From Defluviicoccus sp. (GTDB taxonomy: Bacteria > Pseudomonadota > Alphaproteobacteria > MPNO01), in contig JAPPHW010000014.1 in NCBI GenBank assembly GCA_028820945.1, forward strand, positions 1 to 19,013: a DNA stretch of 19,013 bases, given 5' to 3'. The first letter of the stretch is position 1; every line of letters begins with the position of its first letter. The translations under genes and the position numbers were made by a program. Below are positions 539-16,657 of this stretch, piece after piece. The notes below the pieces were generated by a model. It saw only the letters and a program-made list of their open reading frames with translations, searched no databases and had not been told where the DNA came from.

Positions 539-3500
539 GTGAAACTGGAAGGCATCGTACCGGGGAGCCGATTGGCCGGCATTCAAGGTGATGACCCGGT
601 GGAAATCGTCGCCACCCGCGCGTACGGCACCGACGCGATCGAGGTGACCTGGAAGGGGCCGGACGGGCTCGGCAGCCGGATTCTCTACCGCAGCGACGAG
701 TCCGGGATCCACGAGGTCGCGCCCGCCCGCCGGTTCGCCTTCGACGGCGACGGAAGGCTGTTCCGGCTGGCCTCGGAGGCGCTCCGTATCCGCCTCGCGC
801 ATCTCTTCGATCCCTACGTCGCCGTCAACGCTTCGCAGATCGAGCCGCTGCCGCACCAGCTTACCGCGGTCTACGGCGCGATGCTCGACCGCCAGCCGCT
901 GCGTTTCCTGCTCGCCGACGATCCGGGCGCCGGCAAGACCGTCATGGCCGGGCTGCTGATCAAGGAGCTTCTGATCCGGGGAAGCCTCGAACGCTGCCTG
1001 ATCGTCGCCCCGGGAAGCCTCGTCGAACAGTGGCAGGACGAGCTCCAGGACAAGTTCGACCTCGCCTTCGACATCGTGAGCCGGGAGCAGGTGGAGACCT
1101 CGGCGACCGGCAACCCCTTCGCCGAGCGCCCGCGGCTGATCGCGCGGCTCGACATGCTGGCCCGCAACGACGTGCTGCAAGCCAGGCTGGAAGCCGCGCC
1201 CGAGTGGGACCTTATCGTCTGCGACGAAGCGCACCGCATGTCGGCCAGCTTCTTCGGCCAGGAGATCAAGTACACTAGGCGCTTCCAGCTGGGCGCGCTG
1301 GCCGGGCGTCTCGCGCGGCACTTCCTGCTGATGACGGCGACACCTCACAACGGCAAGGAGGAGGACTTTCAGCTCTTCATGGGCCTCCTCGACGCCGACC
1401 GGTTCGAGGGACGCTTCCGGGAAGGCGTCCACAAGGTCGACCCCTCGGACATGATGCGCCGGCTGACCAAGGAGGAGCTCTACCGCTTCGACGGCAGCCC
1501 GCTGTTCCCCGAGCGCCGCGCCTACACGATCTCCTACCGGCTCTCGCCCCGCGAGGACGCGCTCTACCAGGCGGTCACGCACTACGTGCGCGAGGAGATG
1601 AACCGCGCCGACCGGCTGGGCGACGACGGCACGCGGCGACGCAACAATGTGGGGTTCGCTTTGCAGATCCTGCAGCGCCGTCTGGCATCCTCGCCGGCGG
1701 CGATCCACGAGTCGCTGAAGAGACGTCTCGCCCGTCTCGAAACCCGGCTGGAGGAAGAACGGCTCGGCCGCCCCGGGCGAGGTTCCGGCGACGCGATTGC
1801 GCCGGGCACGGCGGAGCCCGCGCTCGACGAGGACGATTTCGACGATGCCACGGGCGAGGAGGTGGAGGCCCACGAGGACCGGCTCGTCGACCGCGCGACC
1901 GCGGCGCAGACCATCGCCGAGCTGGAAGCGGAGATCGCCGAGCTGCGGCGCCTGGAGAGGATGGCGAACGCGCTCCGCCGGTCCGGCGAGGACACCAAGT
2001 GGCGCGAGGTCGACCGCATCCTGGACGATCCCCTGGTCCACGACCCGGGGCGCGGCGTCCGCCGCAAGATCGTCGTCTTCACCGAGGCGCGCGACACGCT
2101 GGAGTATCTCGCCCGCCGCATTCGCGACCGCACCGGCGAAGCGGACAGCGTGACGGTGATCCACGGCAGCGTCCCGCGCGACCGGCGGCGCGCCGCCATC
2201 GCCGCCTTCAACGACGATCCCGCGGTCCGCTTCCTGCTCGCCAACGATGCCGCGGGCGAAGGCGTGAACCTGCAGCGCGGCGCCCACCTGATGGTCAACT
2301 ACGACCTGCCATGGAACCCCAACCGGCTGGAACAGCGCTTCGGCCGCATCCACCGGATCGGACAGACCGAGGTGTGCCATCTGTGGAACCTGGTGGCGAG
2401 CGAGACCCGCGAGGGCGCGGTCTACCAGCGGCTCCTGGAAAAGCTGGAAACGGCGCGGGAGACCCTGGGCGGCAAGGTCTATGACGTGCTGGGCGAGCTG
2501 TTCGAGGCGCGGCCGCTGCGCGAGCTGTTCATGGAAGCGATCCGCTACGGCGAGCGGCCGGAGATACGCGACAGGTTGTTCCAGACGATCGACGGCGCCG
2601 TCGATGTCGACAACATCAACGACCTCGTCGTGCGCAACAAGCTGACCCAGGAGGGGCTCGACCCGGCCGCGGTCCGCGGCGTGCGGGAGGATATGGAGCG
2701 GGCGGCGGCGCGCCGCCTCCAGCCCCACCACATCCGCTCGTTCTTCGAGGCGGCGTTCGCGGAGGCCGGTGGCGTCTTGCGGCCGCGCGAAACGGGACGC
2801 ACCGAGGTCACGCGCGTCCCGCCCATCCTGCGCGACCGGGACCGCCTGATCGGACGCGCCGATCCGGTGCTGCCGCGCTACCGCCGCATCTGTTTCGACA
2901 AGGCGCACATCCCGGGCCAGCCGCAAGCGGCGCTCGTGGCGCCCGGCCACCCGCTGCTCGACTCGTTGATCGACCTGACGCTCGAGCGCTACCGCGACCT
3001 GCTCGCGCGCGGCGCGGTGCTGGTGGACGAGACCGACCGGCACGACGACCCCCGCGTGCTGGTGACGCTGCGCCACGCGATTCGCGACGGGCGGACGACG
3101 CGGAACGGCAAGCCGCAGACGATCTCCGAGCGGCTGCAATTCGTCTGGCTGGAAGCCGAGGGCGGGGCGCATGACGGCGGGCCCGCGCCCTATCTCGACT
3201 GCCGCGGCGTGCAAGAGGAAGAGAGCGGCAGGCTGGAGGCGCTGCTGGACGCGGCGTGGCTCAAGGAACCGCTGGAGGAGCACGCGCGGACGCTCGCGGT
3301 CATCGATCTGGTGCCCCGGCATCTGAGCGAGGTGAGGGAGCCGCGCCTCGCCGAGCTTGACAAGATCGAGGCGGCGATCAAGGAGCGGATGCGCCGCGAG
3401 ATCGCCCACCTCCAGCATCGCGCCCTGGAGCTCGAAGCGGAGGAGAAGGCCGGCAAGCGTCCCCGGCTCAATTCGGAGAACGTGCGGCGCCAGGCCGAGG

Positions 3501-4075
3501 CGCTGACCGACCGGCTGGAACTCAGGCTCGCCGACATCGCGCGCCAGAGGGACATTGCGCCCCTGCCGCCGGAAGTCTGCGGCGCGGCCCTCGTCGTGCC
3601 GGCGAAACTGCTTCGCGGGGAAGAGGCGGACGAAGGCACCGCAAAGGAAATAGACGAGACCGCCGACCCGCTCAGCCGCGCAGAAGTCGAGGCCCGGGCG
3701 ATGGATACGGTCATGGAACGCGAGCGAAGCCTCGGATACGAGCCGTTCGACGTTTCGTCGGAGAATCGGGGCTACGACATCGAGAGCCGCGATCCCGAGA
3801 CCGGCAGCCTGCGCTTCATTGAGGTCAAGGGCCGCCGCGCCGATGCACAGGCCATCGCGGTCACGCGGAACGAGATGCTGGCGGCGTTTAACGCGGGGGA
3901 TTCCTTTGTCCTCGCCGCCGTCCTCGTCGAAGACGGTTTCACCCACCGGCCGCTCTACGTGCCCAACCCGGCCCCGCTGTTCGGCGCGGAGCCCGGGTTC
4001 AACGAGGTCCACCGCGCGATTTCCGTCGCGTCCATCAAGGCGGCGGCGCAGGACGGCGCCGACGGCGGGCCCTAG
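539..4075 (+). CDS. drmD: DrmD-like SNF2 helicase with C-terminal DUF3883 domain
   Basis: A superfamily-2 DNA translocase of 1178 residues, predicted to act on foreign DNA in the cytoplasm. Motif I is DDPGAGKT (residues 127-134), motif II is DEAH (229-232) and motif III is TATPH (266-270). The C-lobe carries DAAGEGVN (from 570) and QRFGRIHRIGQ (599-609), the classic Swi2/Snf2 motif VI. A charged helical segment lies between the two lobes (about 390-480). The C-terminal part (about 1050-1160) matches DUF3883, with GYD at 1078-1080 and EVK at 1095-1097, an arrangement like a PD-(D/E)xK nuclease site. The GTG start is chosen because the conserved N-terminus (KLEGIVPGSRLAGI) begins there. The sequence resembles DISARM DrmD helicases, but drmA, drmB and drmC are absent, so the name describes the family only. 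It is the first gene of the defence run. Confidence 0.9.
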   Translation: MKLEGIVPGSRLAGIQGDDPVEIVATRAYGTDAIEVTWKGPDGLGSRILYRSDESGIHEVAPARRFAFDGDGRLFRLASEALRIRLAHLFDPYVAVNASQIEPLPHQLTAVYGAMLDRQPLRFLLADDPGAGKTVMAGLLIKELLIRGSLERCLIVAPGSLVEQWQDELQDKFDLAFDIVSREQVETSATGNPFAERPRLIARLDMLARNDVLQARLEAAPEWDLIVCDEAHRMSASFFGQEIKYTRRFQLGALAGRLARHFLLMTATPHNGKEEDFQLFMGLLDADRFEGRFREGVHKVDPSDMMRRLTKEELYRFDGSPLFPERRAYTISYRLSPREDALYQAVTHYVREEMNRADRLGDDGTRRRNNVGFALQILQRRLASSPAAIHESLKRRLARLETRLEEERLGRPGRGSGDAIAPGTAEPALDEDDFDDATGEEVEAHEDRLVDRATAAQTIAELEAEIAELRRLERMANALRRSGEDTKWREVDRILDDPLVHDPGRGVRRKIVVFTEARDTLEYLARRIRDRTGEADSVTVIHGSVPRDRRRAAIAAFNDDPAVRFLLANDAAGEGVNLQRGAHLMVNYDLPWNPNRLEQRFGRIHRIGQTEVCHLWNLVASETREGAVYQRLLEKLETARETLGGKVYDVLGELFEARPLRELFMEAIRYGERPEIRDRLFQTIDGAVDVDNINDLVVRNKLTQEGLDPAAVRGVREDMERAAARRLQPHHIRSFFEAAFAEAGGVLRPRETGRTEVTRVPPILRDRDRLIGRADPVLPRYRRICFDKAHIPGQPQAALVAPGHPLLDSLIDLTLERYRDLLARGAVLVDETDRHDDPRVLVTLRHAIRDGRTTRNGKPQTISERLQFVWLEAEGGAHDGGPAPYLDCRGVQEEESGRLEALLDAAWLKEPLEEHARTLAVIDLVPRHLSEVREPRLAELDKIEAAIKERMRREIAHLQHRALELEAEEKAGKRPRLNSENVRRQAEALTDRLELRLADIARQRDIAPLPPEVCGAALVVPAKLLRGEEADEGTAKEIDETADPLSRAEVEARAMDTVMERERSLGYEPFDVSSENRGYDIESRDPETGSLRFIEVKGRRADAQAIAVTRNEMLAAFNAGDSFVLAAVLVEDGFTHRPLYVPNPAPLFGAEPGFNEVHRAISVASIKAAAQDGADGGP

Positions 4076-4180: not shown

Positions 4181-4891
4181 ATGGCGCAGAGTTCACGAAC
4201 GGCAGAGGGCGGACGCGACACCGCGATCGAGCTGGTCGAGGTGTCCGTGGTGCTCGTCGCGAACCAGAACGATCCTTCGATCCTCAACCCGGATTTCCTG
4301 CGCTACAACGGGATCGTGGACGAGGCGCTGAAACTGGCCCAACCGCCCATGTCGACCCCGATGATTTCCCAAGTGATTTTCGAGGGCGATATCGCCGTGA
4401 GTGCCGAACCACACCGGTTCGTGTTCAAGCAAAAAGGCGACCCGCTCAGCGAGGATGCGTGCGTGGTGCCGGAATTTGCGGAGCGGTTCGTGCAGACGGT
4501 CTCGCACATTCCCTACACAGCGATCGGAATCAACGCCAAGAGTTTCAGGCCGCCGAACGACGACTCACCGTATGGCGTGGCAGATACCTTGCTGGATGGC
4601 GGCAAGTGGATGTCTTTCAGGGACGTGCGGCCGGATATCCACTTAAGGGCGGTATACGGTTACGAAGGAAGGAGAATCACCCTTGATGTCGGTGGTGTCG
4701 GGGTGGTGAGAGATGACGGCGCCTCGGGCCACGGCTTGTTGTTCGAGGCGAACATCCATCGGGACATCGCGCAGAGGGATCAGGCACGGCGCATCGAGAG
4801 GGCATCGGCTATTCTCAATGCTTGGAGGGAGGACATTTCCGACTTCAACGACCTCGTGGCAAAGTTCTATAAAATGGGAATGTCCCGATGA
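4181..4891 (+). CDS. Unrecognised 236-residue protein of the defence operon
   Basis: I do not recognise a family. The protein is soluble, with no signal peptide or membrane segment. It looks mostly beta-rich over residues 15-180, with recurring short hydrophobic strands, and ends in a charged helical tail (about 190-236, containing RIERASAILNAWREDISDF). The ATG at 4181 is supported by GAAGGG eight bases upstream. Its stop overlaps the next start by four bases (ATGA), so the two are probably translationally coupled. Its base composition (35 of 60 G+C in 4381-4440) is lower than that of the helicase before it. Its position inside a helicase/methylase/ATPase run suggests an accessory role in the same system, for example in target recognition or control; this is inference. 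Confidence 0.75.
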   Translation: MAQSSRTAEGGRDTAIELVEVSVVLVANQNDPSILNPDFLRYNGIVDEALKLAQPPMSTPMISQVIFEGDIAVSAEPHRFVFKQKGDPLSEDACVVPEFAERFVQTVSHIPYTAIGINAKSFRPPNDDSPYGVADTLLDGGKWMSFRDVRPDIHLRAVYGYEGRRITLDVGGVGVVRDDGASGHGLLFEANIHRDIAQRDQARRIERASAILNAWREDISDFNDLVAKFYKMGMSR

Positions 4892-5550
4892 CGGCCTCAT
4901 CTCACATGGCGATGGCAGTGCCGACTGCCGAGCCTTCGACGGACCTTCTCCGGTCGACGCCGGATGCTTTCGTGATTACCCATGTGGATCGCGATCACCT
5001 GCTCGTCCATGAACATTTGAAAAATATATTGGCGATATGCCGGCAATCCGGCGTTACCGATCGTCTAGTTCAGGCATGGTTTGAACCGGTTGGAAGCAGT
5101 GTAGAGAACGTTACAGATACATCGAGTTCCCGGGATCTCTCCCCCAGGATCGTCGAATTCATGGAGACCGTCGGCGGTCGAAACTCCGACCTGAGGGACG
5201 CGCTGAACGATCTGGAGGAGGTCTCAGCCGAGGCGCGGGAAGAGGAATTTCCAATCCCCTCGGACTTGGCGCTGGCGAACGCCCGCCGGCTGTTGCTGGC
5301 CATGTACAAGCTTTCGCCCCGGCGTTTCGAGGTCTACCCCACGCCGGACGGCGAGGTCGCTATCGACGCCCCGGGCGGGCGCGGACGCTCGGTCGTGCTG
5401 CTGTGCGACTCCAACGGCGGCGCCCTTTGTCTGGTCAATATGGACGGCAGGCACAGGCGCGCGCGCTATTCGGATACGGGCTCGCTGCCCGACGGTTTCG
5501 TTCGGGAAGCGCTGGACGAAGTGGCGCAGCGGGGCGAACTGGCCGCGTGA
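4888..5550 (+). CDS. Unrecognised 220-residue protein, apparently two-part
   Basis: No family is assigned. The N-terminal part (about residues 1-110) is soluble, partly helical and AT-rich at DNA level (25 of 60 G+C in 4981-5040). The C-terminal part (about 115-220) is GC-rich (47 of 60 in 5341-5400). It begins with a helix (PSDLALANARRLLLAMYKLS), then a compact beta-rich core with RRFEVYPTPDGEVAID. That core looks like a conserved bacterial module of unknown function; I recall similar hypothetical proteins from memory only. The ATG overlaps the previous stop, and its own stop overlaps the next GTG start. The composition step suggests a gene built from two sources. No catalytic motif is visible. 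Confidence 0.75.
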   Translation: MTASSHMAMAVPTAEPSTDLLRSTPDAFVITHVDRDHLLVHEHLKNILAICRQSGVTDRLVQAWFEPVGSSVENVTDTSSSRDLSPRIVEFMETVGGRNSDLRDALNDLEEVSAEAREEEFPIPSDLALANARRLLLAMYKLSPRRFEVYPTPDGEVAIDAPGGRGRSVVLLCDSNGGALCLVNMDGRHRRARYSDTGSLPDGFVREALDEVAQRGELAA

Positions 5551-5973: not shown

Positions 5974-5988
5974 CGGAGAACCCCTTTG
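5974..5988 (+). promoter_or_regulatory. Ribosome site that favours the TTG start of the methylase
   Basis: GGAG at 5975-5978 stands seven bases before TTG at 5986-5988, an ideal spacing. The first ATG of the frame (5998) would lie 19 bases away, too far for this site. The TTG start is therefore preferred; it adds four residues. Confidence 0.5.
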
Positions 5989-8925
5989 ACCGCCGACATG
6001 TCTCCCCACCGCAAGAAACTCATCGAGGTCTCCCTGCCGCTGGAAGCGATCAATAGGGCGTCGGCGCGGGAGAAGTCGATTCGGCATGGGCATCCGTCGA
6101 CCCTGCATCTGTGGTGGGCGCGACGGCCGCTGGCGGCGTGCCGGGCGGTGCTGTTCGCGCAGCTGATCGACGATCCGGAGTCATGGCCCGAAGAGTTCCC
6201 GACCGAGGAGGACCAGGCGCACGAACGGGCGCGGCTGCACCGAATCATCGCCGAAATGGTGCCGTGGGAGGCAACCAACGACGAGCTGATTCTGAACCGG
6301 GCGCGCTATGAGATCGCGCGATCTCTCGCCCGAGGCCGGGGCGAGGCGCCGCCGCCGCGCGAGGACCCGGAGGCGGTGCTGTTCTGGCTCGCCGACAACG
6401 CGCCTCCGGTTTGCGATCCGTTCTGCGGCGGCGGCTCGATCCCGCTGGAGGCGCAGCGGCTCGGCCTGCACGCGCACGGGTCGGACCTCAACCCGGTCGC
6501 GGTACTGGTGTCCAAGGCGACTTGCGAGATCCCGCCCAAATTCGCCGGGCGTTCCCCGGTCAACCCCGACCGCGACCCGCACGTGGCGTGGAAGGGCGCA
6601 CAGGGGCTCGCCGAGGATATCCGCCATTACGGCCAGTGGATGCGCGACGAGGCAGAGTCCCGGATCGGGCACCTCTACCCGAAGGTCGCAGTCACCGAGA
6701 CGATGGTGGCGGAACGGCCGGACCTCAAGCCGTATGCCGGCAAGGAGCTGACCGTCATTGCTTGGATTTGGTCACGTACGGTCGCCTCGCCTGATCCGAT
6801 GGCGCGGGGAGCGCGCGTCCCACTGGTTTCATCTTTTATGCTCTCAACCAAGTCGGGAAAGCAGGCTTGGGCCGAAATTGTCCACGACACGGAGGCTCCG
6901 GATGCCTGGCGCTTCGTCGTGAACACGGGCACGATCAACGAGGACGATGAAGCAAGAAAAAAATTGGGAACCAAAGCGGGCAAGGCACAAGATTTCCTTT
7001 GCTGTCTGACCGGTACTCCCATCCAACGGACCTACATTCAGGCTGAAGGCAAGGCAGATCGGCTAGCTAAACGCTTGATGGCAGTTGTGGTCGCCGACGC
7101 CCGCGGCCGGCTTTATTTGGGGCCGAAAGACTTAGAAGAATTGGTAGCCGATGCGGAGGAGATGCGCGAACTCGTCTCCAGCGCGCGAACTGGTTTCCTG
7201 TCTGGATCCACGCCGACACGAGCAATGATTACGGGGGGCGTGTGTTCGGCGTACGGCCTCAGAACTTGGGGGCATCTCTTCACCGACCGGCAGCTGGTGG
7301 CGCTGACGACCCTTTCGGACCTTGTTGCGGAAGCGCGGGAGAAGGTGCTGGTGGATGCGCTGGCCGCCGGCATGGACGCCGACGCGCCCCGCCTCGCCGA
7401 TGGCGGCACCGGCGCCCAAGCCTACGCCGACGCCGTGGCGACATACTTGGGGTTGGCGACCGCAAAGGCCGCGGATTTGGGGAATTCCCTTTGCAGATGG
7501 GAACCGATCGCCCAATGCCCGAGACAGCTCTTTGCCAGACAGGCGATTCCGATGGTTTGGGACTTCGCGGAAGCAAACCCGTTTTCCAGGTCGTCCGGCA
7601 GTTGGGTGGTCTTTTGCGAGGGGCTGGCTAGGGCTCTGGAACGATGCTTCACGCTCAAGAACCTCGCCCCAGCGACCCTGGAGCAGCGCGACATCACGCT
7701 TCATGGCGACACCCAGCCCCGGATGATTGCCACCGATCCCCCCTACTACGACAACATCGGCTATGCCGATCTCTCAGATTTCTTTTACGTCTGGCAGCGC
7801 CGCGCTCTGCGAAGCGTGTGGCCCCATCTGTTCCGCCGTGTGCTGGTGCCGAAGGACGAAGAGCTCGTCGCCACGCCCTACCGCCACGGCGGCAAGGAAA
7901 CGGCGGAACGATTTTTCATGGAAGGCATGGGGAAGGCGCTGGCCAACATGCGTCAGTCCGGAATCGATCAATATCCGGTTACGCTCTATTACGCCTTCAA
8001 ACAGTCGGAAGTTGCAAAGGAAGGTCTGACCTCCCCGGGTTGGGCTACCTTTTTGCAAGCCGTGTTCGATACGGGCTACGTCATTGACGGCACGTGGCCC
8101 ATGCGGACCGAGAACGCGAGCAGAATGATCGGTCAGGGATCGAACGCCCTCGCGTCCTCCATCGTTCTCGTCTGCCGCAAACGGCCCGACGACGCGCCCG
8201 TCGTCACTCGCCGGGAGTTCGTGGCGCAGCTCCGCTCAACGCTTCCTGAGGCACTCGCCAGAATTCGCGAGGGCGGCGTCGGTCCTGTCGACATGGCGCA
8301 GGCGGCGATCGGCCCCGGCATGGGCGTGTTCACCGCCGCGTCCCGAGTACTGGAGGCCGACGATTCGCCGATGACCGTGCGCACGGCCATCGCGCTGATC
8401 AACCAGGTGAGGGACGAAATCTCCGGTGAGGAGGCGACCGGCTACGACGCCGACACCCGGTTCTGCATCGACTGGTTCGAGACCTTCGACATGGCGGAGG
8501 GCGTATCGGGAGAGGCGATCACCATGGCGCAGGCCTACGGCATCGGGATCGGCGACCTCGAGACCGCGGGGGTCTTCAGCGCCCGAGGCGGTTCGGCGCG
8601 GCTGCTCCGCCGGGACGAGCTTCCGGCGGACTGGACCCCCGCGACCGACAAGCGCCTGACCGACTGGGAATGCGCGCAGCACCTGGCACGCATGCTGGAG
8701 TCGCCGGAGGGCGGCATCGACGCTGCGGCGCACCTCTACGCGCGGATGGAGCCGGACCGGGCGGAGGCCGCACGCCTGCTCGCCTACCGCCTCTACGACA
8801 TCTGCGAGCGCAAGGACCGCGCCGCCGAGGCGCAGGTCTGGAACATGCTGGCCCGCGAATGGCCGGCGCTCGAAGCCGCCGCGGCGGGGATGGAAACCGA
8901 TGCCGGCGAGCCCCTACTCTTGTAG
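5986..8925 (+). CDS. DUF1156 DNA amino-methyltransferase, defence-associated
   Basis: A 979-residue protein predicted to transfer a methyl group from S-adenosylmethionine to the exocyclic amine of adenine or cytosine, probably marking self DNA. The N-terminus is a typical DUF1156 region (IEVSLPLEAIN, then HLWWARRPLAACRAV at about 42-56). Motif I is DPFCGGGS (144-151), the cofactor-binding loop. The catalytic motif IV is DPPYYDN (584-590), the DPPY form of N6-adenine/N4-cytosine enzymes. The long stretch between them (about 255-580) is the best candidate for target recognition. The C-terminal 300 residues are helical. The frame is intact. The middle of the gene is far poorer in GC than its ends, which suggests recombination. 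Homologues recur beside DUF499 ATPases and SNF2 helicases, as here. No partner restriction enzyme of classical type is present. Confidence 0.9.
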   Translation: MTADMSPHRKKLIEVSLPLEAINRASAREKSIRHGHPSTLHLWWARRPLAACRAVLFAQLIDDPESWPEEFPTEEDQAHERARLHRIIAEMVPWEATNDELILNRARYEIARSLARGRGEAPPPREDPEAVLFWLADNAPPVCDPFCGGGSIPLEAQRLGLHAHGSDLNPVAVLVSKATCEIPPKFAGRSPVNPDRDPHVAWKGAQGLAEDIRHYGQWMRDEAESRIGHLYPKVAVTETMVAERPDLKPYAGKELTVIAWIWSRTVASPDPMARGARVPLVSSFMLSTKSGKQAWAEIVHDTEAPDAWRFVVNTGTINEDDEARKKLGTKAGKAQDFLCCLTGTPIQRTYIQAEGKADRLAKRLMAVVVADARGRLYLGPKDLEELVADAEEMRELVSSARTGFLSGSTPTRAMITGGVCSAYGLRTWGHLFTDRQLVALTTLSDLVAEAREKVLVDALAAGMDADAPRLADGGTGAQAYADAVATYLGLATAKAADLGNSLCRWEPIAQCPRQLFARQAIPMVWDFAEANPFSRSSGSWVVFCEGLARALERCFTLKNLAPATLEQRDITLHGDTQPRMIATDPPYYDNIGYADLSDFFYVWQRRALRSVWPHLFRRVLVPKDEELVATPYRHGGKETAERFFMEGMGKALANMRQSGIDQYPVTLYYAFKQSEVAKEGLTSPGWATFLQAVFDTGYVIDGTWPMRTENASRMIGQGSNALASSIVLVCRKRPDDAPVVTRREFVAQLRSTLPEALARIREGGVGPVDMAQAAIGPGMGVFTAASRVLEADDSPMTVRTAIALINQVRDEISGEEATGYDADTRFCIDWFETFDMAEGVSGEAITMAQAYGIGIGDLETAGVFSARGGSARLLRRDELPADWTPATDKRLTDWECAQHLARMLESPEGGIDAAAHLYARMEPDRAEAARLLAYRLYDICERKDRAAEAQVWNMLAREWPALEAAAAGMETDAGEPLLL

Positions 8926-8959: not shown

Positions 8960-9727
8960 ATGGGGCTAGACGCGGCCAGAGGCGCCAGACAGCGGGTAGA
9001 TCGGGCTCTGGAAGCTCTCCGGGTCGGGCTCGGAGCCTATGTCGAGAGGCACATGCGCGACCGGCACGGCGAGCGTTGGCGCGATCATGCAAGCCGGACG
9101 CGGGGCGACGAGGCGGGCCGGGAGCTCGATATCTACGCGCTCCTCAAGACTTTGCTCGACAACTGGAACGACCTGTTCCGGCATGATAGCCAACTGCGCC
9201 GGGCGAGAAGCTTCATCTCGCTTGCCATGGACGCGCGCAACAGAGCCGCACATTTCTCCGGCGAGCTGTCCACACGGGAGGCGCTACGCTACCTGGACGC
9301 GATGCGCGAACTGGCGGTTGCAGTGGGCGCAACGCCGCAGGCCGGGATCATAGAAACTCTCTACGACGAACAGACCACGGCCAGTGCTTCCCAAGCCATT
9401 CCGGCACTTGCACCCCCGGTGCCCCACAAGTCTGCCGCGACGGGGACGGTACGCGGCAAGTATGCACCGCTATACAGTCATCTCATCGCGAGGGACGGCG
9501 CTTTCTGGCACGCATCCTTCCGTGAGGTCGAGTCCGTCCTCGGGTTCGATCTGCCGGCGTCCGCCAGGCGGCACCCAGCTTGGTGGGCAAACCAGGAAAC
9601 CGGCCGTAGTCATGCGCTCGCATGGCAGGCCGCGGGATGGAGAACCCGGGACCTGAATCTCACGGCGGAAACCGTGACCTTCGAACGCGCAGGAAATCCG
9701 GGAGCGCGGGACCGGGATCGACGTTGA
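8960..9727 (+). CDS. Swt1-type HEPN domain fused to DUF7662
   Basis: A 255-residue protein in two parts. Residues 13-142 are a Swt1-family HEPN domain with RNRAAH (93-98), the RNxxxH signature of HEPN ribonucleases. Residues about 165-245 (KYAPLYSHL, then LGFDLPASARRHPAWWAN and HALAWQAAGW) match my memory of DUF7662, a small domain of unknown function. The HEPN part is a near copy of the start of the following DUF499 gene. The gene lies 34 bases after the methylase and 77 before the ATPase. An RNase toxin, or a regulator that pairs with the HEPN of the ATPase, are both possible; the intact RNxxxH argues for activity. The start is the ATG that puts the HEPN domain close to the N-terminus. Confidence 0.8.
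   Translation: MGLDAARGARQRVDRALEALRVGLGAYVERHMRDRHGERWRDHASRTRGDEAGRELDIYALLKTLLDNWNDLFRHDSQLRRARSFISLAMDARNRAAHFSGELSTREALRYLDAMRELAVAVGATPQAGIIETLYDEQTTASASQAIPALAPPVPHKSAATGTVRGKYAPLYSHLIARDGAFWHASFREVESVLGFDLPASARRHPAWWANQETGRSHALAWQAAGWRTRDLNLTAETVTFERAGNPGARDRDRR
8996..9385 (+). repeat. HEPN-coding repeat, copy 1
   Basis: This 130-codon segment aligns without gaps to 9853-10242. By hand count 103 of 130 residues are identical. The DNA is also clearly alike, for example around CTCCTCAAGAC and GACAACTGGAACGA. It spans the whole HEPN domain up to LYDEQT; similarity stops soon after in both genes. Confidence 0.9.
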
Positions 9728-9804
9728 CGCCGCCGCAGCCGTCCGTTCAGGTATGCGCGGCGCCTCAATTTGCGCCGTAGATCGATCGAAACCAGAATTT
9801 CTGC

Positions 9805-12800
9805 ATGAGCGATACGGAAACGACAGCGGCGGCATTGGCCGCGAAGCAGAGGGTGGAGAAGGCCGTCGAGGCGCTGCGGGTCGGACTCGGCCCCTATGTC
9901 GGCAAGCACATGCGCGACCGCCACGGCAATCGCTGGCGGCACTATGCGAGCCGCGCGCGGGGGGACGAGTCCAGCGGGGATCTCGACCTCTACGCCCTCC
10001 TCAAGACGCTGCTCGACAACTGGAACGATTTGTTCCGGCACGACGACGGATTGCGCAGGGCGCGGAGCTTCATCTCGCTCGCCATGGATGCCCGCAACAG
10101 GGCCGCGCATTTCACCGGCGAGATGCCGGCACGGGAGGCGCTGCGCTATCTCGACGCGCTGCGCGAGGTGGCCGCCGCGGTCGGCGCCGCTCCCCAGGCC
10201 GGGATCATAGAAAAGCTCTACGACGAACAGACCGCGGCGAGCGGGATCCCGGCCGAGTCGGAGCCCCCGGGCCTCGATCTCGAAGAGCCTCCCGCACCAG
10301 AACATCTGCGTCCCTGGCGCGATGTCTGCGAGCCGCATCCGGACGTGCTCGAAGCGCGGTTCTCCGATGCCGACTTCGCGGCCAACCTGGCGCATGTCGA
10401 CCAGCGCGAGGGCAGCGAGGAATACACCGACCCGGCCGCGTTCTTCCGCATCACCTATGCGACGGAGGGGCTACGGCGCGTGCTCGCCGCGGCGATCGCG
10501 CGGCTGGCCGGCGAAGGCGGCGATCCGGTGATCGGGCTGCAAACCAATTTCGGCGGCGGCAAGACCCACACCATGCTCGCGCTCTACCACCTGGCGGGCG
10601 CGGCCGAGGCGGGCTACCGGCCCCAAGAGCTCGACGGCATGGCGCCGATCCTCGGGGCGGCGGGCGTCGAAACCCTGGACCGGGTCAACCGCGCCGTGTT
10701 CGTCGGCACCCACAAGGGCGCGGCCGAGGCGATGCACGCCGAAGGGGGCCGCGAGATCCGCACGCTCTGGGGCTACCTGGCTTTCCGGCTGGGCGGCTGG
10801 GAGGCGGTCGAGACCATCGCCGATTCCGAGGAGGCCGGCACCAACCCCGGCTCGGAGCGGCTGATCCCGATCCTGCGGAGCGCCGCGCCCTGCCTGATCC
10901 TGATGGACGAGGTGGTGGCCTTCGCGCGCCAACTGCGCGGCGTCGAATACGACGCCTTCCACGCCTTCATCCAGTCGCTCACCGAGGCCTCGGCCGCGGT
11001 GGACGGCGCGGTTGTCGTCGGGTCGCTGCCGGAATCGGGCGCGGAGGTCGGCGACGAACAGGGCCGGGATGCGCTCCAGCGGCTGGAGAAGATATTCGGC
11101 CGGGTTCAATCCGCGTGGACCCCGGCGAGCGGCGCCGAGACCTTCGAGATCGTCCGGCGGCGACTATTCCAGCCGCTCGACGAGGCGGGCGAGAAGGTGC
11201 GGGACGAAACCATCCGCGCCTTCCGCAAGCTCTACCGCGACCACCGGGCCGATTTCCCGCCGGAAGTCCGCGAGGCGGCGTACGAGGACGAGATGCGGCG
11301 GGCCTATCCGCTGCATCCCGAGGTGCTGCGGCGTTTCTCCGGCGACTGGTCGGTGCTGGAGAAGTTCCAGCGCACGCGCGGCATCCTCAAGATCATGGCG
11401 AGCGCGGTCTACGCGCTGTGGAGCGGGGAGAGCGCCGCGCCGCTGATCACGCCGGCGCTGCTGCCGTTCCGCGACGCGAAGGTGCGCACCGCGCTGCTGG
11501 AGCCGCTGGACCGCGCGTTCGGGCCGATCCTGCAATCCGAGGTCGACGGCGATCAATCGCTCACCGCCCGGATCGAATCCCAGCGCCCGCGCTTTTCTCG
11601 GTCGAAGGCGGCGACGCAGGCGGCGCGGGCGGTGTTCTTCGCGACCGCACCCCGCGCCGGCACCGGCAGCGCCGGCATGACCGGCACCGAGATCCGCCTC
11701 GCCTGCGCCCAGCCCGGTGACCAGATCGCGATCTTCGGCGAGGCGCTACAGGAGATCGCGTCGCGCTCGGCCCATCTCTATCGCGACGGCGACAGCTACT
11801 GGTTCTCTCCGCAGGCTACGCTGAACAAGCTCGCCGCCGACCGGGCCGGGGACGTGACCGACGACTACGCCGACCGGCGCATCGTCGAGCTCCTGCGCGA
11901 CGAGCAGCGCGGCCGGGCCGGCTTCCCGCGGGTCCACGCCGCGCCGGACAACCCGACCGACATCGAGGACCGGCGCGCGATGGCGCTGATCGTCCTGCCG
12001 CCTTCGGCACCGCACGACGCGAGCAGCGGGGCGGAGTCGAAGGCGGCCGAGCGCGCCAGGGAGACCATCGAGCGCAGGGGGAGCGGGCAGCGGCGTTATC
12101 GCAACGCGCTGGTGTTCGCCGCGGCGGACGCATCGACGGTCGAGACCGCGCGCGAGAATGCCAAGCGCGAACGCGCCTGGCAATCGATCCTCGACGACAA
12201 GGACCTGATGGAGAACCAGACCGGGGCGCAGGTGCGCGACGCCCAGACCCAGGCCGAACGGAGCCGTCAGTCGCTGCTGCAAAGCGTCCGGGGCGCGTGG
12301 GTCCACGTTCTCTATCCCGACCCGCCGGACGACGCCGACGGCGGCGCGGGCTACGTCGTGCGCTCGTCGCGCCTGGTCAATCGCGGCGGCGCCAAGCCGG
12401 TCCCGGAGGCGGTGTGGGACAAGGCGAAGTCCGACGATACCGTTCTGGACGCAATCGGCCCGGACAATCTGACCAAGGAGCTCGATCGGGTGTGGCCGCC
12501 GGAGCGCCCCCATCTGGCGATCGAGGACATCCGCGACTGGTTCGCATCCTATGTCTACCTGCCCCGGCTGCGCGACGACGCGGCGCTCGACGGCGCGTTG
12601 CAGAAGCTGGTCGAGGACCTGGCCCATCCCTACGCGTTCGCGGCGTCGTTCGACGAGGAGGCCGGCACCTATGGCGATGTGGTGGACGGCAGGGCGCTGT
12701 TGCCGGGCATGCTGGGCGACGGGCTCCTGGTGCGCCGAGACGCCATCCCGACGCCGTCCGACGACCCCGGGAAGCCCGGGGAAAGCGCGGAACCGGGCGG

Positions 12801-13095
12801 GGAGAAGCCCAGACCGCCGGGCTCGGAGGACCCCGCCCCCGCCGCACGGTGGCCGAAACGGTTCTTCGCCTCGCTCCCGGTCGACCCGGAACGGGCCGGG
12901 CTGGAAGTCGCGCGCATCATGGACGGCCTGCTGGTCGAGCTCACCCGCGCGCCCGGGAGCAGCATCGCGCTGACCCTGGAAATCCAGGGCAGCGGCGGCG
13001 AAGACGGCTACCCCGAGGACGTGGTCGAAACTGTCAAGGCCAACGCCCGCGACCTCAAGCTCAACGACGACGATTTGGGGTTCGAGGAGAACTAG
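9805..13095 (+). CDS. HEPN-DUF499 AAA+ ATPase, defence-associated
   Basis: A 1096-residue cytoplasmic ATPase. Residues 17-146 are a Swt1-family HEPN domain with RNRAAH at 97-102, a probable metal-independent RNase site. From about residue 170 the protein matches DUF499: the P-loop is FGGGKTH (249-255), in the atypical GGGKT form of the family, and the Walker B is LILMDE, with D368 and E369. Further ATPase and helical segments continue to about 980. A proline- and charge-rich linker (about 985-1015) precedes a last conserved domain ending at 1096. DUF499 proteins are known as partners of DUF1156 methylases in predicted defence islands; the fused HEPN suggests that ATP-driven sensing could be coupled to RNA cleavage. 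The ribosome site before ATG 9805 is weak. It follows the HEPN-DUF7662 gene in the same orientation. Confidence 0.88.
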   Translation: MSDTETTAAALAAKQRVEKAVEALRVGLGPYVGKHMRDRHGNRWRHYASRARGDESSGDLDLYALLKTLLDNWNDLFRHDDGLRRARSFISLAMDARNRAAHFTGEMPAREALRYLDALREVAAAVGAAPQAGIIEKLYDEQTAASGIPAESEPPGLDLEEPPAPEHLRPWRDVCEPHPDVLEARFSDADFAANLAHVDQREGSEEYTDPAAFFRITYATEGLRRVLAAAIARLAGEGGDPVIGLQTNFGGGKTHTMLALYHLAGAAEAGYRPQELDGMAPILGAAGVETLDRVNRAVFVGTHKGAAEAMHAEGGREIRTLWGYLAFRLGGWEAVETIADSEEAGTNPGSERLIPILRSAAPCLILMDEVVAFARQLRGVEYDAFHAFIQSLTEASAAVDGAVVVGSLPESGAEVGDEQGRDALQRLEKIFGRVQSAWTPASGAETFEIVRRRLFQPLDEAGEKVRDETIRAFRKLYRDHRADFPPEVREAAYEDEMRRAYPLHPEVLRRFSGDWSVLEKFQRTRGILKIMASAVYALWSGESAAPLITPALLPFRDAKVRTALLEPLDRAFGPILQSEVDGDQSLTARIESQRPRFSRSKAATQAARAVFFATAPRAGTGSAGMTGTEIRLACAQPGDQIAIFGEALQEIASRSAHLYRDGDSYWFSPQATLNKLAADRAGDVTDDYADRRIVELLRDEQRGRAGFPRVHAAPDNPTDIEDRRAMALIVLPPSAPHDASSGAESKAAERARETIERRGSGQRRYRNALVFAAADASTVETARENAKRERAWQSILDDKDLMENQTGAQVRDAQTQAERSRQSLLQSVRGAWVHVLYPDPPDDADGGAGYVVRSSRLVNRGGAKPVPEAVWDKAKSDDTVLDAIGPDNLTKELDRVWPPERPHLAIEDIRDWFASYVYLPRLRDDAALDGALQKLVEDLAHPYAFAASFDEEAGTYGDVVDGRALLPGMLGDGLLVRRDAIPTPSDDPGKPGESAEPGGEKPRPPGSEDPAPAARWPKRFFASLPVDPERAGLEVARIMDGLLVELTRAPGSSIALTLEIQGSGGEDGYPEDVVETVKANARDLKLNDDDLGFEEN
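9853..10242 (+). repeat. HEPN-coding repeat, copy 2
   Basis: Partner of 8996-9385, 857 bases downstream in the same orientation, at the start of the DUF499 gene. Differences are spread evenly (27 of 130 residues, mostly conservative) and both copies keep the RNxxxH motif, so this is an older duplication under selection and not a recent exact copy. Confidence 0.9.
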
Positions 13096-13204: not shown

Positions 13205-16200
13205 ATGGCAAGCACGAAAACGGGCGGACGGCAGTTACTCATGCCGTACGATACGATGAACGGTCGAGATGCGACCGCGCTTGAAATCCGAATCGGTGCC
13301 CCGATCGAGCACGATTCGGAACGTTCGACGTTGCGGAAGATCGAGCAGTTACTCGCCGCCGACGGACGACGCGCCGTCGTGTTTGCAAATTTCGAGATTG
13401 AGGGACGCCAGATCGACCTGCTGGTCGCCCTGGATGATGTCGTGCTCGTCATCGAAACGAAGGCCTTCACCCGTTCGGTGCGCGGCGGCGAGAACGGAGA
13501 CTGGCAGGTGCATTTGTCATCCGGCCAGTGGAAGGATTTCAGGAATCCCTACCGGCAGGCTCTCGATGCCGCGCTCGCGGTCAAGAATGCCGCAGGTGCT
13601 CTAGGACACACCCACGCTCCGTACGTTAATGCGGTGCTGGTGTTTTCGCCGGGAATTCCTCCGGGTTCCGGCGCGTTACCGGGCAACAGCAAGGTTTCGG
13701 TGATTGGAGAGGACGGCCTAGGGGAGGAACTCGGCAAGAGGACCCCAGGTGCCTGGTCGATCGAACGATGGAGGGAGTTCGGAGACGCTCACGGGCTAAA
13801 GCGGACATCATCGGTTTGCGCGGCATGCGATGCCGGGCTGGCGGAAGCGGAAGATCGTCTTCGGCACTACGGGACAGTGTTCCGTCGGACATACAGTGAA
13901 GGCGCGGCACTCGTTCCGTTTACATGTGAATCGGGCGGCACGGTCGTTTCATCCTCCGATGTCGTGCATGCTGTCGCGGAGGGGCGCGCCGGTACGCTGT
14001 TCCATGGTCCGTCAGGGTGCGGAAAGACGATGCTGGCAGCCTCGTCTGGCGTTGCGTTCAGCGACCGCGGCGGCGTGGCCATCTCTGCACAGGGCAAGGA
14101 TTTCTCCGGCAGCGCAAGGGACCTGTTGGGGCGCGAAGCGACACTTCTGGGCATGCAATCGGCGATACAGCTTCTCAACGATGCGCGGCGGTTGAATCGA
14201 CCGATCTTGCTGATTGTGGATGGCTATAACGAATGCCGCGAGGATCGACGGAGGGCGCTCACACGGGTCGTTGCGGCGTTGGCCTACAGATATGAAGCGG
14301 AAATCCTGGTGACGTCGCAGCTTCCGCTGGTGCGGAGCGACCTCCTGGAGTTACGGACATTCGAGGTTCTGGCGCCGACGATCGAGACCAAGATTGCGAT
14401 TGCGAGACAGGCATCTGAAAGCAAGGCCGATTTGCAGGAAGTTGGGAGCCTTCTTGCCGCCGTCTCGAGCGGCCTGGAAGCAAGGCTTGTCGGAGAGGTC
14501 GGGGCCGCTGTGACCCCGGGAAGCAGCCGCTATGTATTGTTCGACACGTTTGCGCGGAGCCGACTGGGCTCGGCGGCGAGCGATGGAATTCGGGTTCTTT
14601 CGCAGGTCGCCGCCTGGTTGTCCGAACGGTTCGCCTTCAGCTTGAGCATCCGCGAGTTCGATAGATTGATCGACGATGCTGGCGTGTCGGCCGAACTCGG
14701 AGGATTGGTGATCGATAGGGGCTTGCTGACGCTGCGCGGAGACAGGGTGAGCTTTCCGCACGAGTTGTTCCTGGATGCCTTCGCCGCGGGAGCTGTGGTT
14801 CGGCAAGCAGCGGGTGCGGGATCGGCGGAGGTAGTCCTGCAAGCCCTTCGTGCCCCGCTTCATGCCGTCCGCAAGGATCTTGTGATCGGAGCGATCGACG
14901 ACGATCTCATGCTTGAATGGCTGCTGCCGAAGCTGGAGGACCATGAATCGATCAGACACTGCTTGGAGGGGCGATGTGGACGGCAGGCACGAGAATGGGC
15001 GGAGGAGCATTGCCGAAGTTTGTGGATTCGGCTGCGGGAGGAGGCCTGCAATGTCCAGTACCGTATGGATCGCGGAGGAGTTGGCTACGTCGAGTTTGAG
15101 GAGTCTTCCCTAGCGCAGTGGAGCCTTTGTGATCGGGCGTTCTTCGCTGTGATTCCGGCGCTGATAGCGGACGGACAAAATCTTGAGATTGCGCTTGAGA
15201 TTGTTGGAATCATGGACCAGCGGATCACTGAGGAGGCAGATCGGCTTTGCAGGGAAACCGGAATTGCCCGGCGGAAGCTTCAGAGTGATCTGTTTGAAAT
15301 CAGCAGCGTGCATCCTCAACGAACATCAGCTGCTCCTGGAATTTCCAACATTTGCGCCGATCTGGATAGCGGCGTGTTCATGGCGCGAAACGGGCTTCTT
15401 GGGCGGTCTGAGAAGACAAAGGGCGCTGAGATTCGTCGAGAGGCAATGAGGCGCGAGCTTTCTCCGGGACAGATTCATCTCTTGCTGTCGCTGTCACGCG
15501 GGGACGGAATTCCGGCGTCATTCATCTCGTGCGCGATGGAGGCGCATTGGGACCGTGCGCCGTATCACCTGCGCCTTTCACTCATGGAAGCAGCGACCAT
15601 GTGGTGCGATGCGGAGGACAAGGCAGATCGGACGAAATTGATCGAAAAGATCGAAGGGGTGTTGGATGGGGGCCACCCCTTATTCTCCTCAATTGTCATG
15701 GAGGCGCTGCAGCGACTCGGTGCTCTGAATAAAGACGCGCGGGAGCATCGAACGGTCGTTCATGAACGGATCAGAGATTGCCTTGCGCGGCCGGCGGACA
15801 GCGAACGTCAGAAGGAAGCATGGGGCATTTACACGGCGCAGTGCGGTCATCCCTATTCGGACGCGTATTGCGAAGTGGTTGCCGGCCTCACGGACAGAGA
15901 GAAAAAGACGCTGTTGGAGATGGCGTCGCGAGGAGCGAACGAGACCTCCTTTCTGGTCGGGCCACTGCTTTTGGAACTCGCATCCTTCGGAGACCCTGAT
16001 GTCGGTGACAGCATCGGACGATGGACTAGCCCCCCACCGAAGGAAAGCCGAACCATGCCCCAGAGCGACATCTATGCCTTTGTTGCGTCGCACATTGCGT
16101 TGGCCAGGCTTGGCTGTCCGCTGCCGGCCCAAAAAAGATCGGATGCGTCCCGATCAGTAGGGGCGCTAAAAGCCTGCGGAGCAATTTTGTACTGGAGCAA

Positions 16201-16657
16201 TCGCACAGATTTGGATGAGAACGAGAAGCACGAAACCTGCGGGTCCGAGCTCGCGATTCTGGTGAACGATGGCAAGTGTGCCGCACTCGGCGTGCTGCGC
16301 GCGTGTGAGGATATATTCGGAGCAGGATGGGATCTCCTTCCCGGCGATGAACCGGTCGTGACCTCTATAGTCGGCATGTTCCCGGAAGAATCGGCTGCAA
16401 TCAGTCGCGAAGCGCTGAACGAACCCATGAACCAGGTCGGGTACTTTCCTCAATGGTCGCACTCCGACCAAGAGCGAATAATCTCCTTTGGTATCGGTGT
16501 CCTTGAGAGATATGGCAACGGTTCCGACCGTATGCTGCTTCGCCGATATGCCTCCAGCACGGAGCATGGCGAGCAAGCGATCGCTGCTATGAAGGCAATA
16601 GAGGAACGCGTGACGGGGATTTCGAGAGGTGTCGAAGCTCGCGAGGGGTCACAATAG
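13205..16657 (+). CDS. NERD nuclease fused to a STAND (NACHT-like) NTPase, Avs-like
   Basis: A 1150-residue protein. The N-terminal domain (about 25-165) matches NERD, a nuclease-related domain of the PD-(D/E)xK fold: D71 in QIDLLV, then E84-T-K86 in VIETKAF. The NTPase domain has P-loop GPSGCGKT (268-275) and Walker B LLIVDGYNE (D339 to E343), close to the NACHT pattern. From about 480 to the end it is a long helical, repeat-like region, typical of the sensor part of STAND proteins. The plan of effector, switch and sensor is that of Avs-type anti-phage proteins, which recognise conserved phage proteins; the ligand here is unknown. Codon use differs from the genes upstream (34 of 60 G+C in 14401-14460 and 30 of 60 in 15181-15240, against 47 of 60 in 12781-12840), so it was probably acquired separately. 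The start is uncertain: GGAG lies 16 bases before ATG 13205, and ATGs at 13241 and 13256 are alternatives. Confidence 0.82.
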   Translation: MASTKTGGRQLLMPYDTMNGRDATALEIRIGAPIEHDSERSTLRKIEQLLAADGRRAVVFANFEIEGRQIDLLVALDDVVLVIETKAFTRSVRGGENGDWQVHLSSGQWKDFRNPYRQALDAALAVKNAAGALGHTHAPYVNAVLVFSPGIPPGSGALPGNSKVSVIGEDGLGEELGKRTPGAWSIERWREFGDAHGLKRTSSVCAACDAGLAEAEDRLRHYGTVFRRTYSEGAALVPFTCESGGTVVSSSDVVHAVAEGRAGTLFHGPSGCGKTMLAASSGVAFSDRGGVAISAQGKDFSGSARDLLGREATLLGMQSAIQLLNDARRLNRPILLIVDGYNECREDRRRALTRVVAALAYRYEAEILVTSQLPLVRSDLLELRTFEVLAPTIETKIAIARQASESKADLQEVGSLLAAVSSGLEARLVGEVGAAVTPGSSRYVLFDTFARSRLGSAASDGIRVLSQVAAWLSERFAFSLSIREFDRLIDDAGVSAELGGLVIDRGLLTLRGDRVSFPHELFLDAFAAGAVVRQAAGAGSAEVVLQALRAPLHAVRKDLVIGAIDDDLMLEWLLPKLEDHESIRHCLEGRCGRQAREWAEEHCRSLWIRLREEACNVQYRMDRGGVGYVEFEESSLAQWSLCDRAFFAVIPALIADGQNLEIALEIVGIMDQRITEEADRLCRETGIARRKLQSDLFEISSVHPQRTSAAPGISNICADLDSGVFMARNGLLGRSEKTKGAEIRREAMRRELSPGQIHLLLSLSRGDGIPASFISCAMEAHWDRAPYHLRLSLMEAATMWCDAEDKADRTKLIEKIEGVLDGGHPLFSSIVMEALQRLGALNKDAREHRTVVHERIRDCLARPADSERQKEAWGIYTAQCGHPYSDAYCEVVAGLTDREKKTLLEMASRGANETSFLVGPLLLELASFGDPDVGDSIGRWTSPPPKESRTMPQSDIYAFVASHIALARLGCPLPAQKRSDASRSVGALKACGAILYWSNRTDLDENEKHETCGSELAILVNDGKCAALGVLRACEDIFGAGWDLLPGDEPVVTSIVGMFPEESAAISREALNEPMNQVGYFPQWSHSDQERIISFGIGVLERYGNGSDRMLLRRYASSTEHGEQAIAAMKAIEERVTGISRGVEAREGSQ

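What the first reader, a model, noticed from the sequence alone, without database searches (positions are those of the whole stretch)
8996..10242. Tandem duplication of a HEPN domain into two different fusion proteins
Residues 13-142 of the protein at 8960 and 17-146 of the protein at 9805 align without gaps, 103 of 130 identical by hand count, both with RNRAAH. One copy leads into DUF7662, the other into DUF499. HEPN RNases work as dimers, so the two could form a heterodimer in which the small protein inhibits, activates or replaces the HEPN of the ATPase. Evenly spread, mostly conservative changes point to selection on both.
Basis: partly seen in the sequence, partly recalled or inferred. 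Interest (0 to 1): 0.75.

Follow-up and report, generated by a model that had tools for sequence, protein, structure and literature searches.

The report
HEPN copied onto an antitoxin-type protein
Inside a bacterial anti-phage gene cluster of a known type sits a small extra protein that joins a copy of the cluster's predicted RNA-cutting domain to a domain which elsewhere heads antitoxin-like proteins, suggesting that toxin-antitoxin parts are recycled in phage defence.

Summary
In detail: two HEPN_Swt1 domains, 103 of 130 residues identical without gaps, lie in adjacent genes of an Hma / Type-1 BREX-related locus. One leads into DUF7662, the other into the DUF499 ATPase HmaC. HEPN-DUF499 fusions are known; no paper in the searched library names DUF7662.

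Two corrections. (1) This is no recent local duplication: the small protein's HEPN groups with HEPN-DUF7662 proteins of other metagenomes, HmaC's with other HmaC. One clade for all HEPN-DUF7662 HEPNs is rejected (AU p 0.010), so HEPN passed between HmaC and DUF7662 proteins more than once. (2) DUF7662 can be placed: 52 of 63 solo domains are followed by a PIN (VapC-like) gene. Its fold looks winged-helix, weakly. At four decayed places such pairs lie beside hmaB or HmaC-type HEPN remnants.

Most likely the small protein is a VapB-like platform whose toxin-binding tail was replaced by HmaC's HEPN. Pairing with HmaC is possible but unproven: the small gene is uncommon, own-pair similarity is not special, and both HEPNs look catalytic. 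The window itself has no PIN gene, tail or operator motif.

The parts
539..4075 (+). hmaA: SNF2-type helicase with C-terminal NOV_C domain
   Evidence: PADLOC HmaA 1520 bits; Pfam Helicase_C, NOV_C
5986..8925 (+). hmaB: DUF1156 DNA methyltransferase (start codon uncertain)
   Evidence: PADLOC HmaB 1190 bits; Pfam DUF1156
8960..9727 (+). small accessory gene HEPN_Swt1-DUF7662, 255 aa, 34 nt after hmaB, 77 nt before hmaC
   Evidence: AlphaFold model pLDDT 82.1, pTM 0.57
8996..9385 (+). HEPN copy 1 (residues 13-142)
9236..9253 (+). RNRAAH (Rx4H) motif of copy 1
   Evidence: sequence; R and H invariant in compared rows
9467..9688 (+). DUF7662 domain (residues 170-243), predicted winged-helix-like
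9805..13095 (+). hmaC: N-terminal HEPN_Swt1 fused to DUF499 ATPase
   Evidence: PADLOC HmaC 752 bits from residue 167 on; Pfam
9853..10242 (+). HEPN copy 2 (residues 17-146 of HmaC)
10093..10110 (+). RNRAAH motif of copy 2
   Evidence: sequence

Best explanation
The small gene is an embedded accessory of an Hma (Type-1 BREX-related) defence locus. SHOWN: it joins a HEPN homologous to that of HmaC to DUF7662; HEPN moved more than once between HmaC and DUF7662 proteins; most solo DUF7662 genes found stand directly before PIN genes, in an arrangement like VapB antitoxins. INFERRED: DUF7662-PIN (VapBC-like) modules entered the hmaB-hmaC slot, and copying of hmaC's 5' end onto DUF7662 replaced the toxin-binding tail and the PIN gene. 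INFERRED MECHANISM: the protein sits on DNA through DUF7662 and pairs its HEPN with another HEPN, its own or that of HmaC, forming the two-sided RNase active site; DNA occupancy and HmaC state would then set RNase activity or hma expression. It is to HmaC roughly what VapB is to VapC, except that the contact is HEPN-HEPN pairing and both sides look catalytic. The confidence given is for a functional partnership with HmaC; for the anatomy and the antitoxin kinship of DUF7662 I would put 0.85.
For: Hma genes around it. HEPN-DUF7662 HEPNs as one clade rejected, p 0.0102; with the reverse order added, p 0.0031; several small clades stand next to different HmaC rows. Rx4H kept in 34, 6 and 141 rows. 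Of 63 distinct solo DUF7662 domains 52 have a PIN gene close downstream (28, 12 and 12 by three PIN profiles), against 167 of 3000 random ORFs of the same loci; 25 of the 27 closest have the first PIN type; 10 of 10 ORFs of the other types and 5 of 5 of the first type sent to Pfam are PIN. A FitA-like antitoxin domain is fused to DUF7662 in L103. hmaB remnants precede DUF7662-PIN in L007, L014 and L082, and HEPN remnants whose 8 best matches are all HmaC follow it in L082 and L083; the PIN stop overlaps the HEPN start by 4 bases in L081, L082, L083.
Against: No complex could be modelled. The hma loci in which I saw an embedded DUF7662-PIN pair are all decayed, two of them in one genome (G008). 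The two HEPN-DUF7662 genes found in searched genomes (G001, G011) show no hma hit beside them, though G001's contig ends 746 bases downstream. In 398 genomes of the phylum 14 have HEPN_Swt1 and none has two. Own HmaC is nearest in 2 of 5 pairs. The window lacks a PIN gene, the tail and the GTAAGTAAG/AGTMAGWACT motif, so no operator for its DUF7662 is identified. 11 of 63 solo DUF7662 have no PIN found. Physical closeness alone could explain repeated HEPN capture.
Confidence: 0.4

Rival explanations
1. Self-contained effector: a HEPN RNase homodimer whose DUF7662 acts as DNA-binding autorepressor or sensor, merely parked in the Hma locus as an embedded defence gene and not touching HmaC.
For: HEPN-DUF7662 without hma neighbours in G011 and probably G001; DUF7662 and Swt1 HEPN join other parts: TIR, DUF6884, uracil-DNA glycosylase; GC3 0.715 against 0.90 in hmaA and hmaC, although hmaB (0.79) and other genes of the window are low too; catalytic motif intact.
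Against: HEPNs of these proteins stand next to several HmaC lineages rather than forming one group; co-occurrence with HEPN-HmaC far above chance.
Confidence: 0.35
2. One reading: a recent tandem duplicate that inhibits HmaC's HEPN as a decoy subunit.
For: Adjacent genes, 79% identity, gapless.
Against: Tree places the copies in separate clades; dS near 1; R and H conserved in 34 of 34 rows, unlike a dead decoy.
Confidence: 0.12
3. Transient recombination product without function.
For: Patchy distribution; hma loci with DUF7662-PIN in other genomes are decaying.
Against: dN/dS 0.07-0.18; eight whole-length relatives at 73-91% identity from other metagenomes; 43 invariant positions in 28 rows.
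Confidence: 0.08

Closest known systems
Hma system (PADLOC) = Type-1 DUF499-centred BREX-Related system
   Same: HmaA, HmaB, HmaC on one strand; N-terminal HEPN on the DUF499 ATPase, reported for 1370 of 2446 taxa (PMC12839542, section 29 read)
   Different: extra HEPN-DUF7662 gene between hmaB and hmaC; DUF7662 and Swt1 are not named in that paper's main text. It does mention other nucleases, HEPN among them, near such loci
Ava_2192-type HEPN-DUF499 of the Swt1 HEPN family (PMC3710099, passages read)
   Same: HEPN, DUF499, SNF2 helicase and R-M components in one operon
   Different: the passages seen describe no second HEPN copy and no DUF7662
VapBC type II toxin-antitoxin systems (general features recalled)
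   Same: solo DUF7662 genes directly before PIN genes, C-terminal tails, operator-like motif upstream of the nearest group
   Different: window protein lacks tail and PIN; carries HEPN instead
Panacea (PanA) hyperpromiscuous antitoxin domain (PMC10440598, passages read)
   Same: one small domain combined with several unrelated toxin or effector domains
   Different: relationship of the domains not tested; DUF7662 is mostly tied to PIN partners
Cas13 intramolecular HEPN pairs (PMC12165695, passages read)
   Same: two different HEPNs form one active site; Swt1 is named there among structural relatives of Cas13an HEPNs
   Different: here the two HEPNs are in separate proteins; pairing unproven

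Membership tests
Hma / Type-1 BR system | HmaA helicase, HmaB methylase and HmaC DUF499 ATPase together | tested here: met
   PADLOC 1520, 1190 and 752 bits
Hma / Type-1 BR system | anti-phage activity | not testable with these tools
   bench assay needed
Swt1-like HEPN | PF18731 over its cut-off, both copies | tested here: met
   66.3 and 54.3 bits against 27.5
Swt1-like HEPN | Rx4-6H motif | tested here: met
   RNRAAH in both; R and H in 34/34, 6/6 and 141/141 rows
Swt1-like HEPN | RNase activity as a dimer | not testable with these tools
   no complex modelling or assay
VapB-type antitoxin (small protein of the window) | PIN toxin gene directly downstream | tested here: not met
   no window ORF hit by the first PIN profile at E 10 or by three profiles at E 0.001; next gene is hmaC
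VapB-type antitoxin (small protein of the window) | toxin-binding C-terminal tail | tested here: not met
   tail motif of the nearest group absent; 12 residues follow residue 243, the end of the Pfam match
VapB-type antitoxin (small protein of the window) | operator motif of the nearest DUF7662-PIN group | tested here: not met
VapBC-type TA (DUF7662-PIN pairs elsewhere) | antitoxin gene first, PIN gene directly after | tested here: met
   52 of 63 distinct solo domains; 15 of 15 ORFs sent to Pfam are PIN
VapBC-type TA (DUF7662-PIN pairs elsewhere) | toxicity and neutralisation | not testable with these tools
   bench assay needed
winged-helix DNA-binding domain (DUF7662) | fold | tested here: inconclusive

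The most novel reading that the evidence does not exclude
A VapBC-type module inserted between hmaB and hmaC was rewired: its antitoxin (DUF7662) lost the PIN toxin and the toxin-binding tail and took a copy of the HEPN of the adjacent defence ATPase, so that a DNA-bound antitoxin platform now reads or gates HmaC through a HEPN-HEPN heterodimer. The same rewiring happened several times, in both domain orders.
Probability: 0.22. Interest if true: 0.8.

Novelty: new variant of a known kind. Interest (0 to 1): 0.58.

Why it matters
It gives an unnamed domain (DUF7662; 0 papers in the searched library) a concrete, testable role as the head of a VapB-like antitoxin family, and offers a case of toxin-antitoxin parts being absorbed into a multi-gene phage-defence system. 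If the HEPN pairing is real, it shows how a suicide RNase fused to a DNA-scanning ATPase can be held and released by a second, DNA-bound HEPN subunit, which bears on the open question of what the HEPN of DUF499 proteins does.

Tried and rejected
Recent local duplication: rejected by tree and dS. Dead-decoy inhibitor: disfavoured, motif invariant. Two 'HEPN-HEPN' HmaC proteins (P0185, P0189): one HEPN split by an insert, not a tandem pair. P0134's low HEPN identity: a stretch of about 25 residues that looks frame-shifted; dropped from the second tree. Pair-specific similarity: own HmaC best in 2 of 5. Reverse-order (DUF7662-HEPN) proteins as two origins: not established (p 0.193). Viral contigs: 35 pattern matches, no relative; phages: none; plasmids: 33 records with distant matches, none covering 80%, no DNA match. 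Solved structures by sequence: only two matches, both above E 0.3. Foldseek on the whole model: nothing at E 0.001. Third protein search (P0184): no further pair. Operator motif in the window: one match with 3 mismatches, no more than shuffles give, none otherwise. GIY-YIG-like tails after DUF7662 (P0079, P0116, P0120, L102) were seen by eye only; Pfam did not confirm them. DUF7662 as a high-copy element: no, 0-2 copies in each of 8 genomes.

The contig-length matching rests on numbers that I copied (37 HEPN+DUF7662 proteins, 128 HmaC entries, 126 distinct lengths); equal length is indirect evidence of the same contig, and members hidden behind cluster representatives are missed. The genome searches scored only 6 and 9 candidates per genome at most.

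Full report
WHAT IS THERE. The window holds hmaA (539-4075), two unassigned ORFs (4181-4891, 4888-5550), hmaB (5986-8925), a small gene (8960-9727), hmaC (9805-13095) and a NERD/P-loop gene (13205-16657), all on the + strand. PADLOC scores of 1520, 1190 and 752 bits identify HmaA, HmaB and HmaC. The HmaC profile starts at residue 167, so the N-terminal HEPN is an addition to the profiled core; this addition is known (PMC3710099, passages; PMC12839542, section 29, which counts 1370 of 2446 Type-1 taxa with it).

THE PAIR. 103 of 130 residues and 310 of 390 nt are identical without gaps. dN is 0.10-0.13 and dS 0.75-1.43 by four methods, dN/dS 0.07-0.18: old and constrained, though a pairwise ratio cannot assign the constraint to each branch. 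The 28 differences avoid residues 79-99 around RNRAAH. GC3 is 0.90 in hmaA and hmaC, 0.79 in hmaB, 0.715 in the small gene, 0.65-0.75 in the NERD gene and the two unassigned ORFs; this hints at separate arrival but does not prove it.

RELATIVES. (126 proteins, best 120 listed) shows HEPN-DUF7662 proteins at 51-91% identity, DUF7662-HEPN in reverse order, TIR-HEPN-DUF7662, TIR-DUF7662, HEPN-DUF6884 and many solo DUF7662. One search gave the HEPN-HmaC set (214 proteins, best 120 listed). In the HEPN tree (117 of 186 rows of sufficient length; 68 of 137 HmaC rows kept; SH-aLRT support) the window's small HEPN lies with P0001-P0008 (97) and the window's HmaC HEPN with other HmaC only (98). Other DUF7662-linked HEPNs lie beside other HmaC rows: P0011, P0012, P0014, P0017, P0018 with P0184, P0180 and L002 (91); P0025, P0031, P0032, P0034, P0037, P0038 with P0204 and P0236 (100); five reverse-order proteins among P0141 and kin (99). 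Two further small clades have no HmaC inside. In the rerun (105 rows; 9 solo rows and three long or odd HmaC rows dropped) one clade for all HEPN-DUF7662 rows is rejected (p 0.0102), likewise with the reverse order added (p 0.0031); the six reverse-order rows alone are not (p 0.193). These trees rest on 134 columns, and many forks are unresolved.

CO-OCCURRENCE. Contig lengths of 4 of 37 HEPN+DUF7662 proteins equal those of HEPN-HmaC proteins (P0002/P0134 5247, P0006/P0127 53233, P0009/P0122 153200, P0018/P0184 15389); jittered lengths give 0.04 on average and never 4 in 20000 trials. The association is uncommon: 4 of 128 HmaC entries, a lower bound. In the genome-contig scan (53 loci) one locus, L001, has HEPN-DUF7662; genome searches added G011 (143 relatives) and nothing more in 385 and 274 genomes, the former partly the same ones (few candidates scored per genome). 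Neither G001 nor G011 has hma hits beside it; G001's contig ends 746 bases downstream. In 398 phylum genomes, 14 carry HEPN_Swt1, none two.

THE SLOT. In L007 the last 42 residues of hmaB (76% identity) end 117 nt before DUF7662-PIN; in L014 an hmaB end lies 110-182 nt before it, depending on the start codon. In L082 (same place as L020) an hmaB middle fragment precedes DUF7662-PIN and a HEPN fragment follows; in L083, another place of the same genome, a degenerate HEPN fragment follows. The eight best matches of both HEPN fragments are HmaC proteins (88% and about 50% identity), but no HmaC core was found after them. In G011 (L081) DUF7662-PIN precedes an intact HEPN-DUF7662 gene. In L081, L082 and L083 the PIN stop overlaps the HEPN start by 4 bases. 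No intact hmaB-DUF7662-PIN-hmaC locus was seen. A duplication spanning DUF7662 and hmaC's 5' end would create HEPN-DUF7662 at its junction, and loss of the PIN stretch the reverse order; this is inference.

HOW IT MAY WORK. HEPN RNases typically work as dimers with a shared active site (PMC12165695, passage). With both motifs intact, a mixed dimer would be competent, not dead. I therefore favour a DNA-tethered HEPN partner that sets when the RNase acts, over a decoy. An independent effector is nearly as likely. Nothing here measures binding.

NOVELTY. Hma and HEPN-DUF499 are known. DUF7662 occurs in 0 papers of the searched library. Searches for HEPN with heterodimer and antitoxin (12 of 17 listed), for Hma, DUF499, HEPN and Swt1 (one search listed 25 of 2078) and for Hma-embedded genes (10 of 19 listed) showed no paper whose title or abstract start describes this arrangement. 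I saw passages of six papers, of one also a whole section. Hence a new variant of a known kind, with a new and testable reading of DUF7662.

Noticed in passing
window 4181-4891 and 4888-5550: Two overlapping ORFs between hmaA and hmaB without any Pfam, PADLOC or NCBIfam match; GC3 0.72-0.75 against 0.90 in hmaA.
   Followed up: no
window 13205-16657: Large gene directly after hmaC with NERD nuclease-related domain and a weak NACHT-like P-loop region, GC3 0.65: possibly a further embedded effector.
   Followed up: no
L016, L019, L022, L024, L026, L013, L081 and others, upstream of DUF7662: GTAAGTAAG once in each of 20 of 116 loci, just before the DUF7662 start where looked at and, by eye, next to promoter-like hexamers: likely operator of DUF7662-PIN pairs.
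   Followed up: partly
L036, L042, L044, L103 and L027, L110: Distant DUF7662 proteins carry other tail types (one a FitA-like domain, others read by eye as antitoxin-like) and other PIN partners, so DUF7662 looks like a general antitoxin head.
   Followed up: partly
L087 3395-4705: Swt1-like HEPN fused to a uracil-DNA glycosylase superfamily domain.
   Followed up: no
P0010, P0013, P0064: TIR-HEPN-DUF7662 and TIR-DUF7662 proteins (P0010 checked): a third effector type on the same platform.
   Followed up: no
P0060, P0062: HEPN_Swt1 fused to DUF6884 (P0060 checked).
   Followed up: no
P0118: DUF7662 preceded by sigma-70 region 1.1 in one frame; fusion, insertion into a sigma-factor gene or assembly artefact.
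   Followed up: no
L080 10962-11882: NYN-domain gene directly before HEPN-DUF7662 in G001; NYN genes are also annotated in the fetched regions around H2 (Thermus oshimai) and H7 (Thermococcus barophilus).
   Followed up: no
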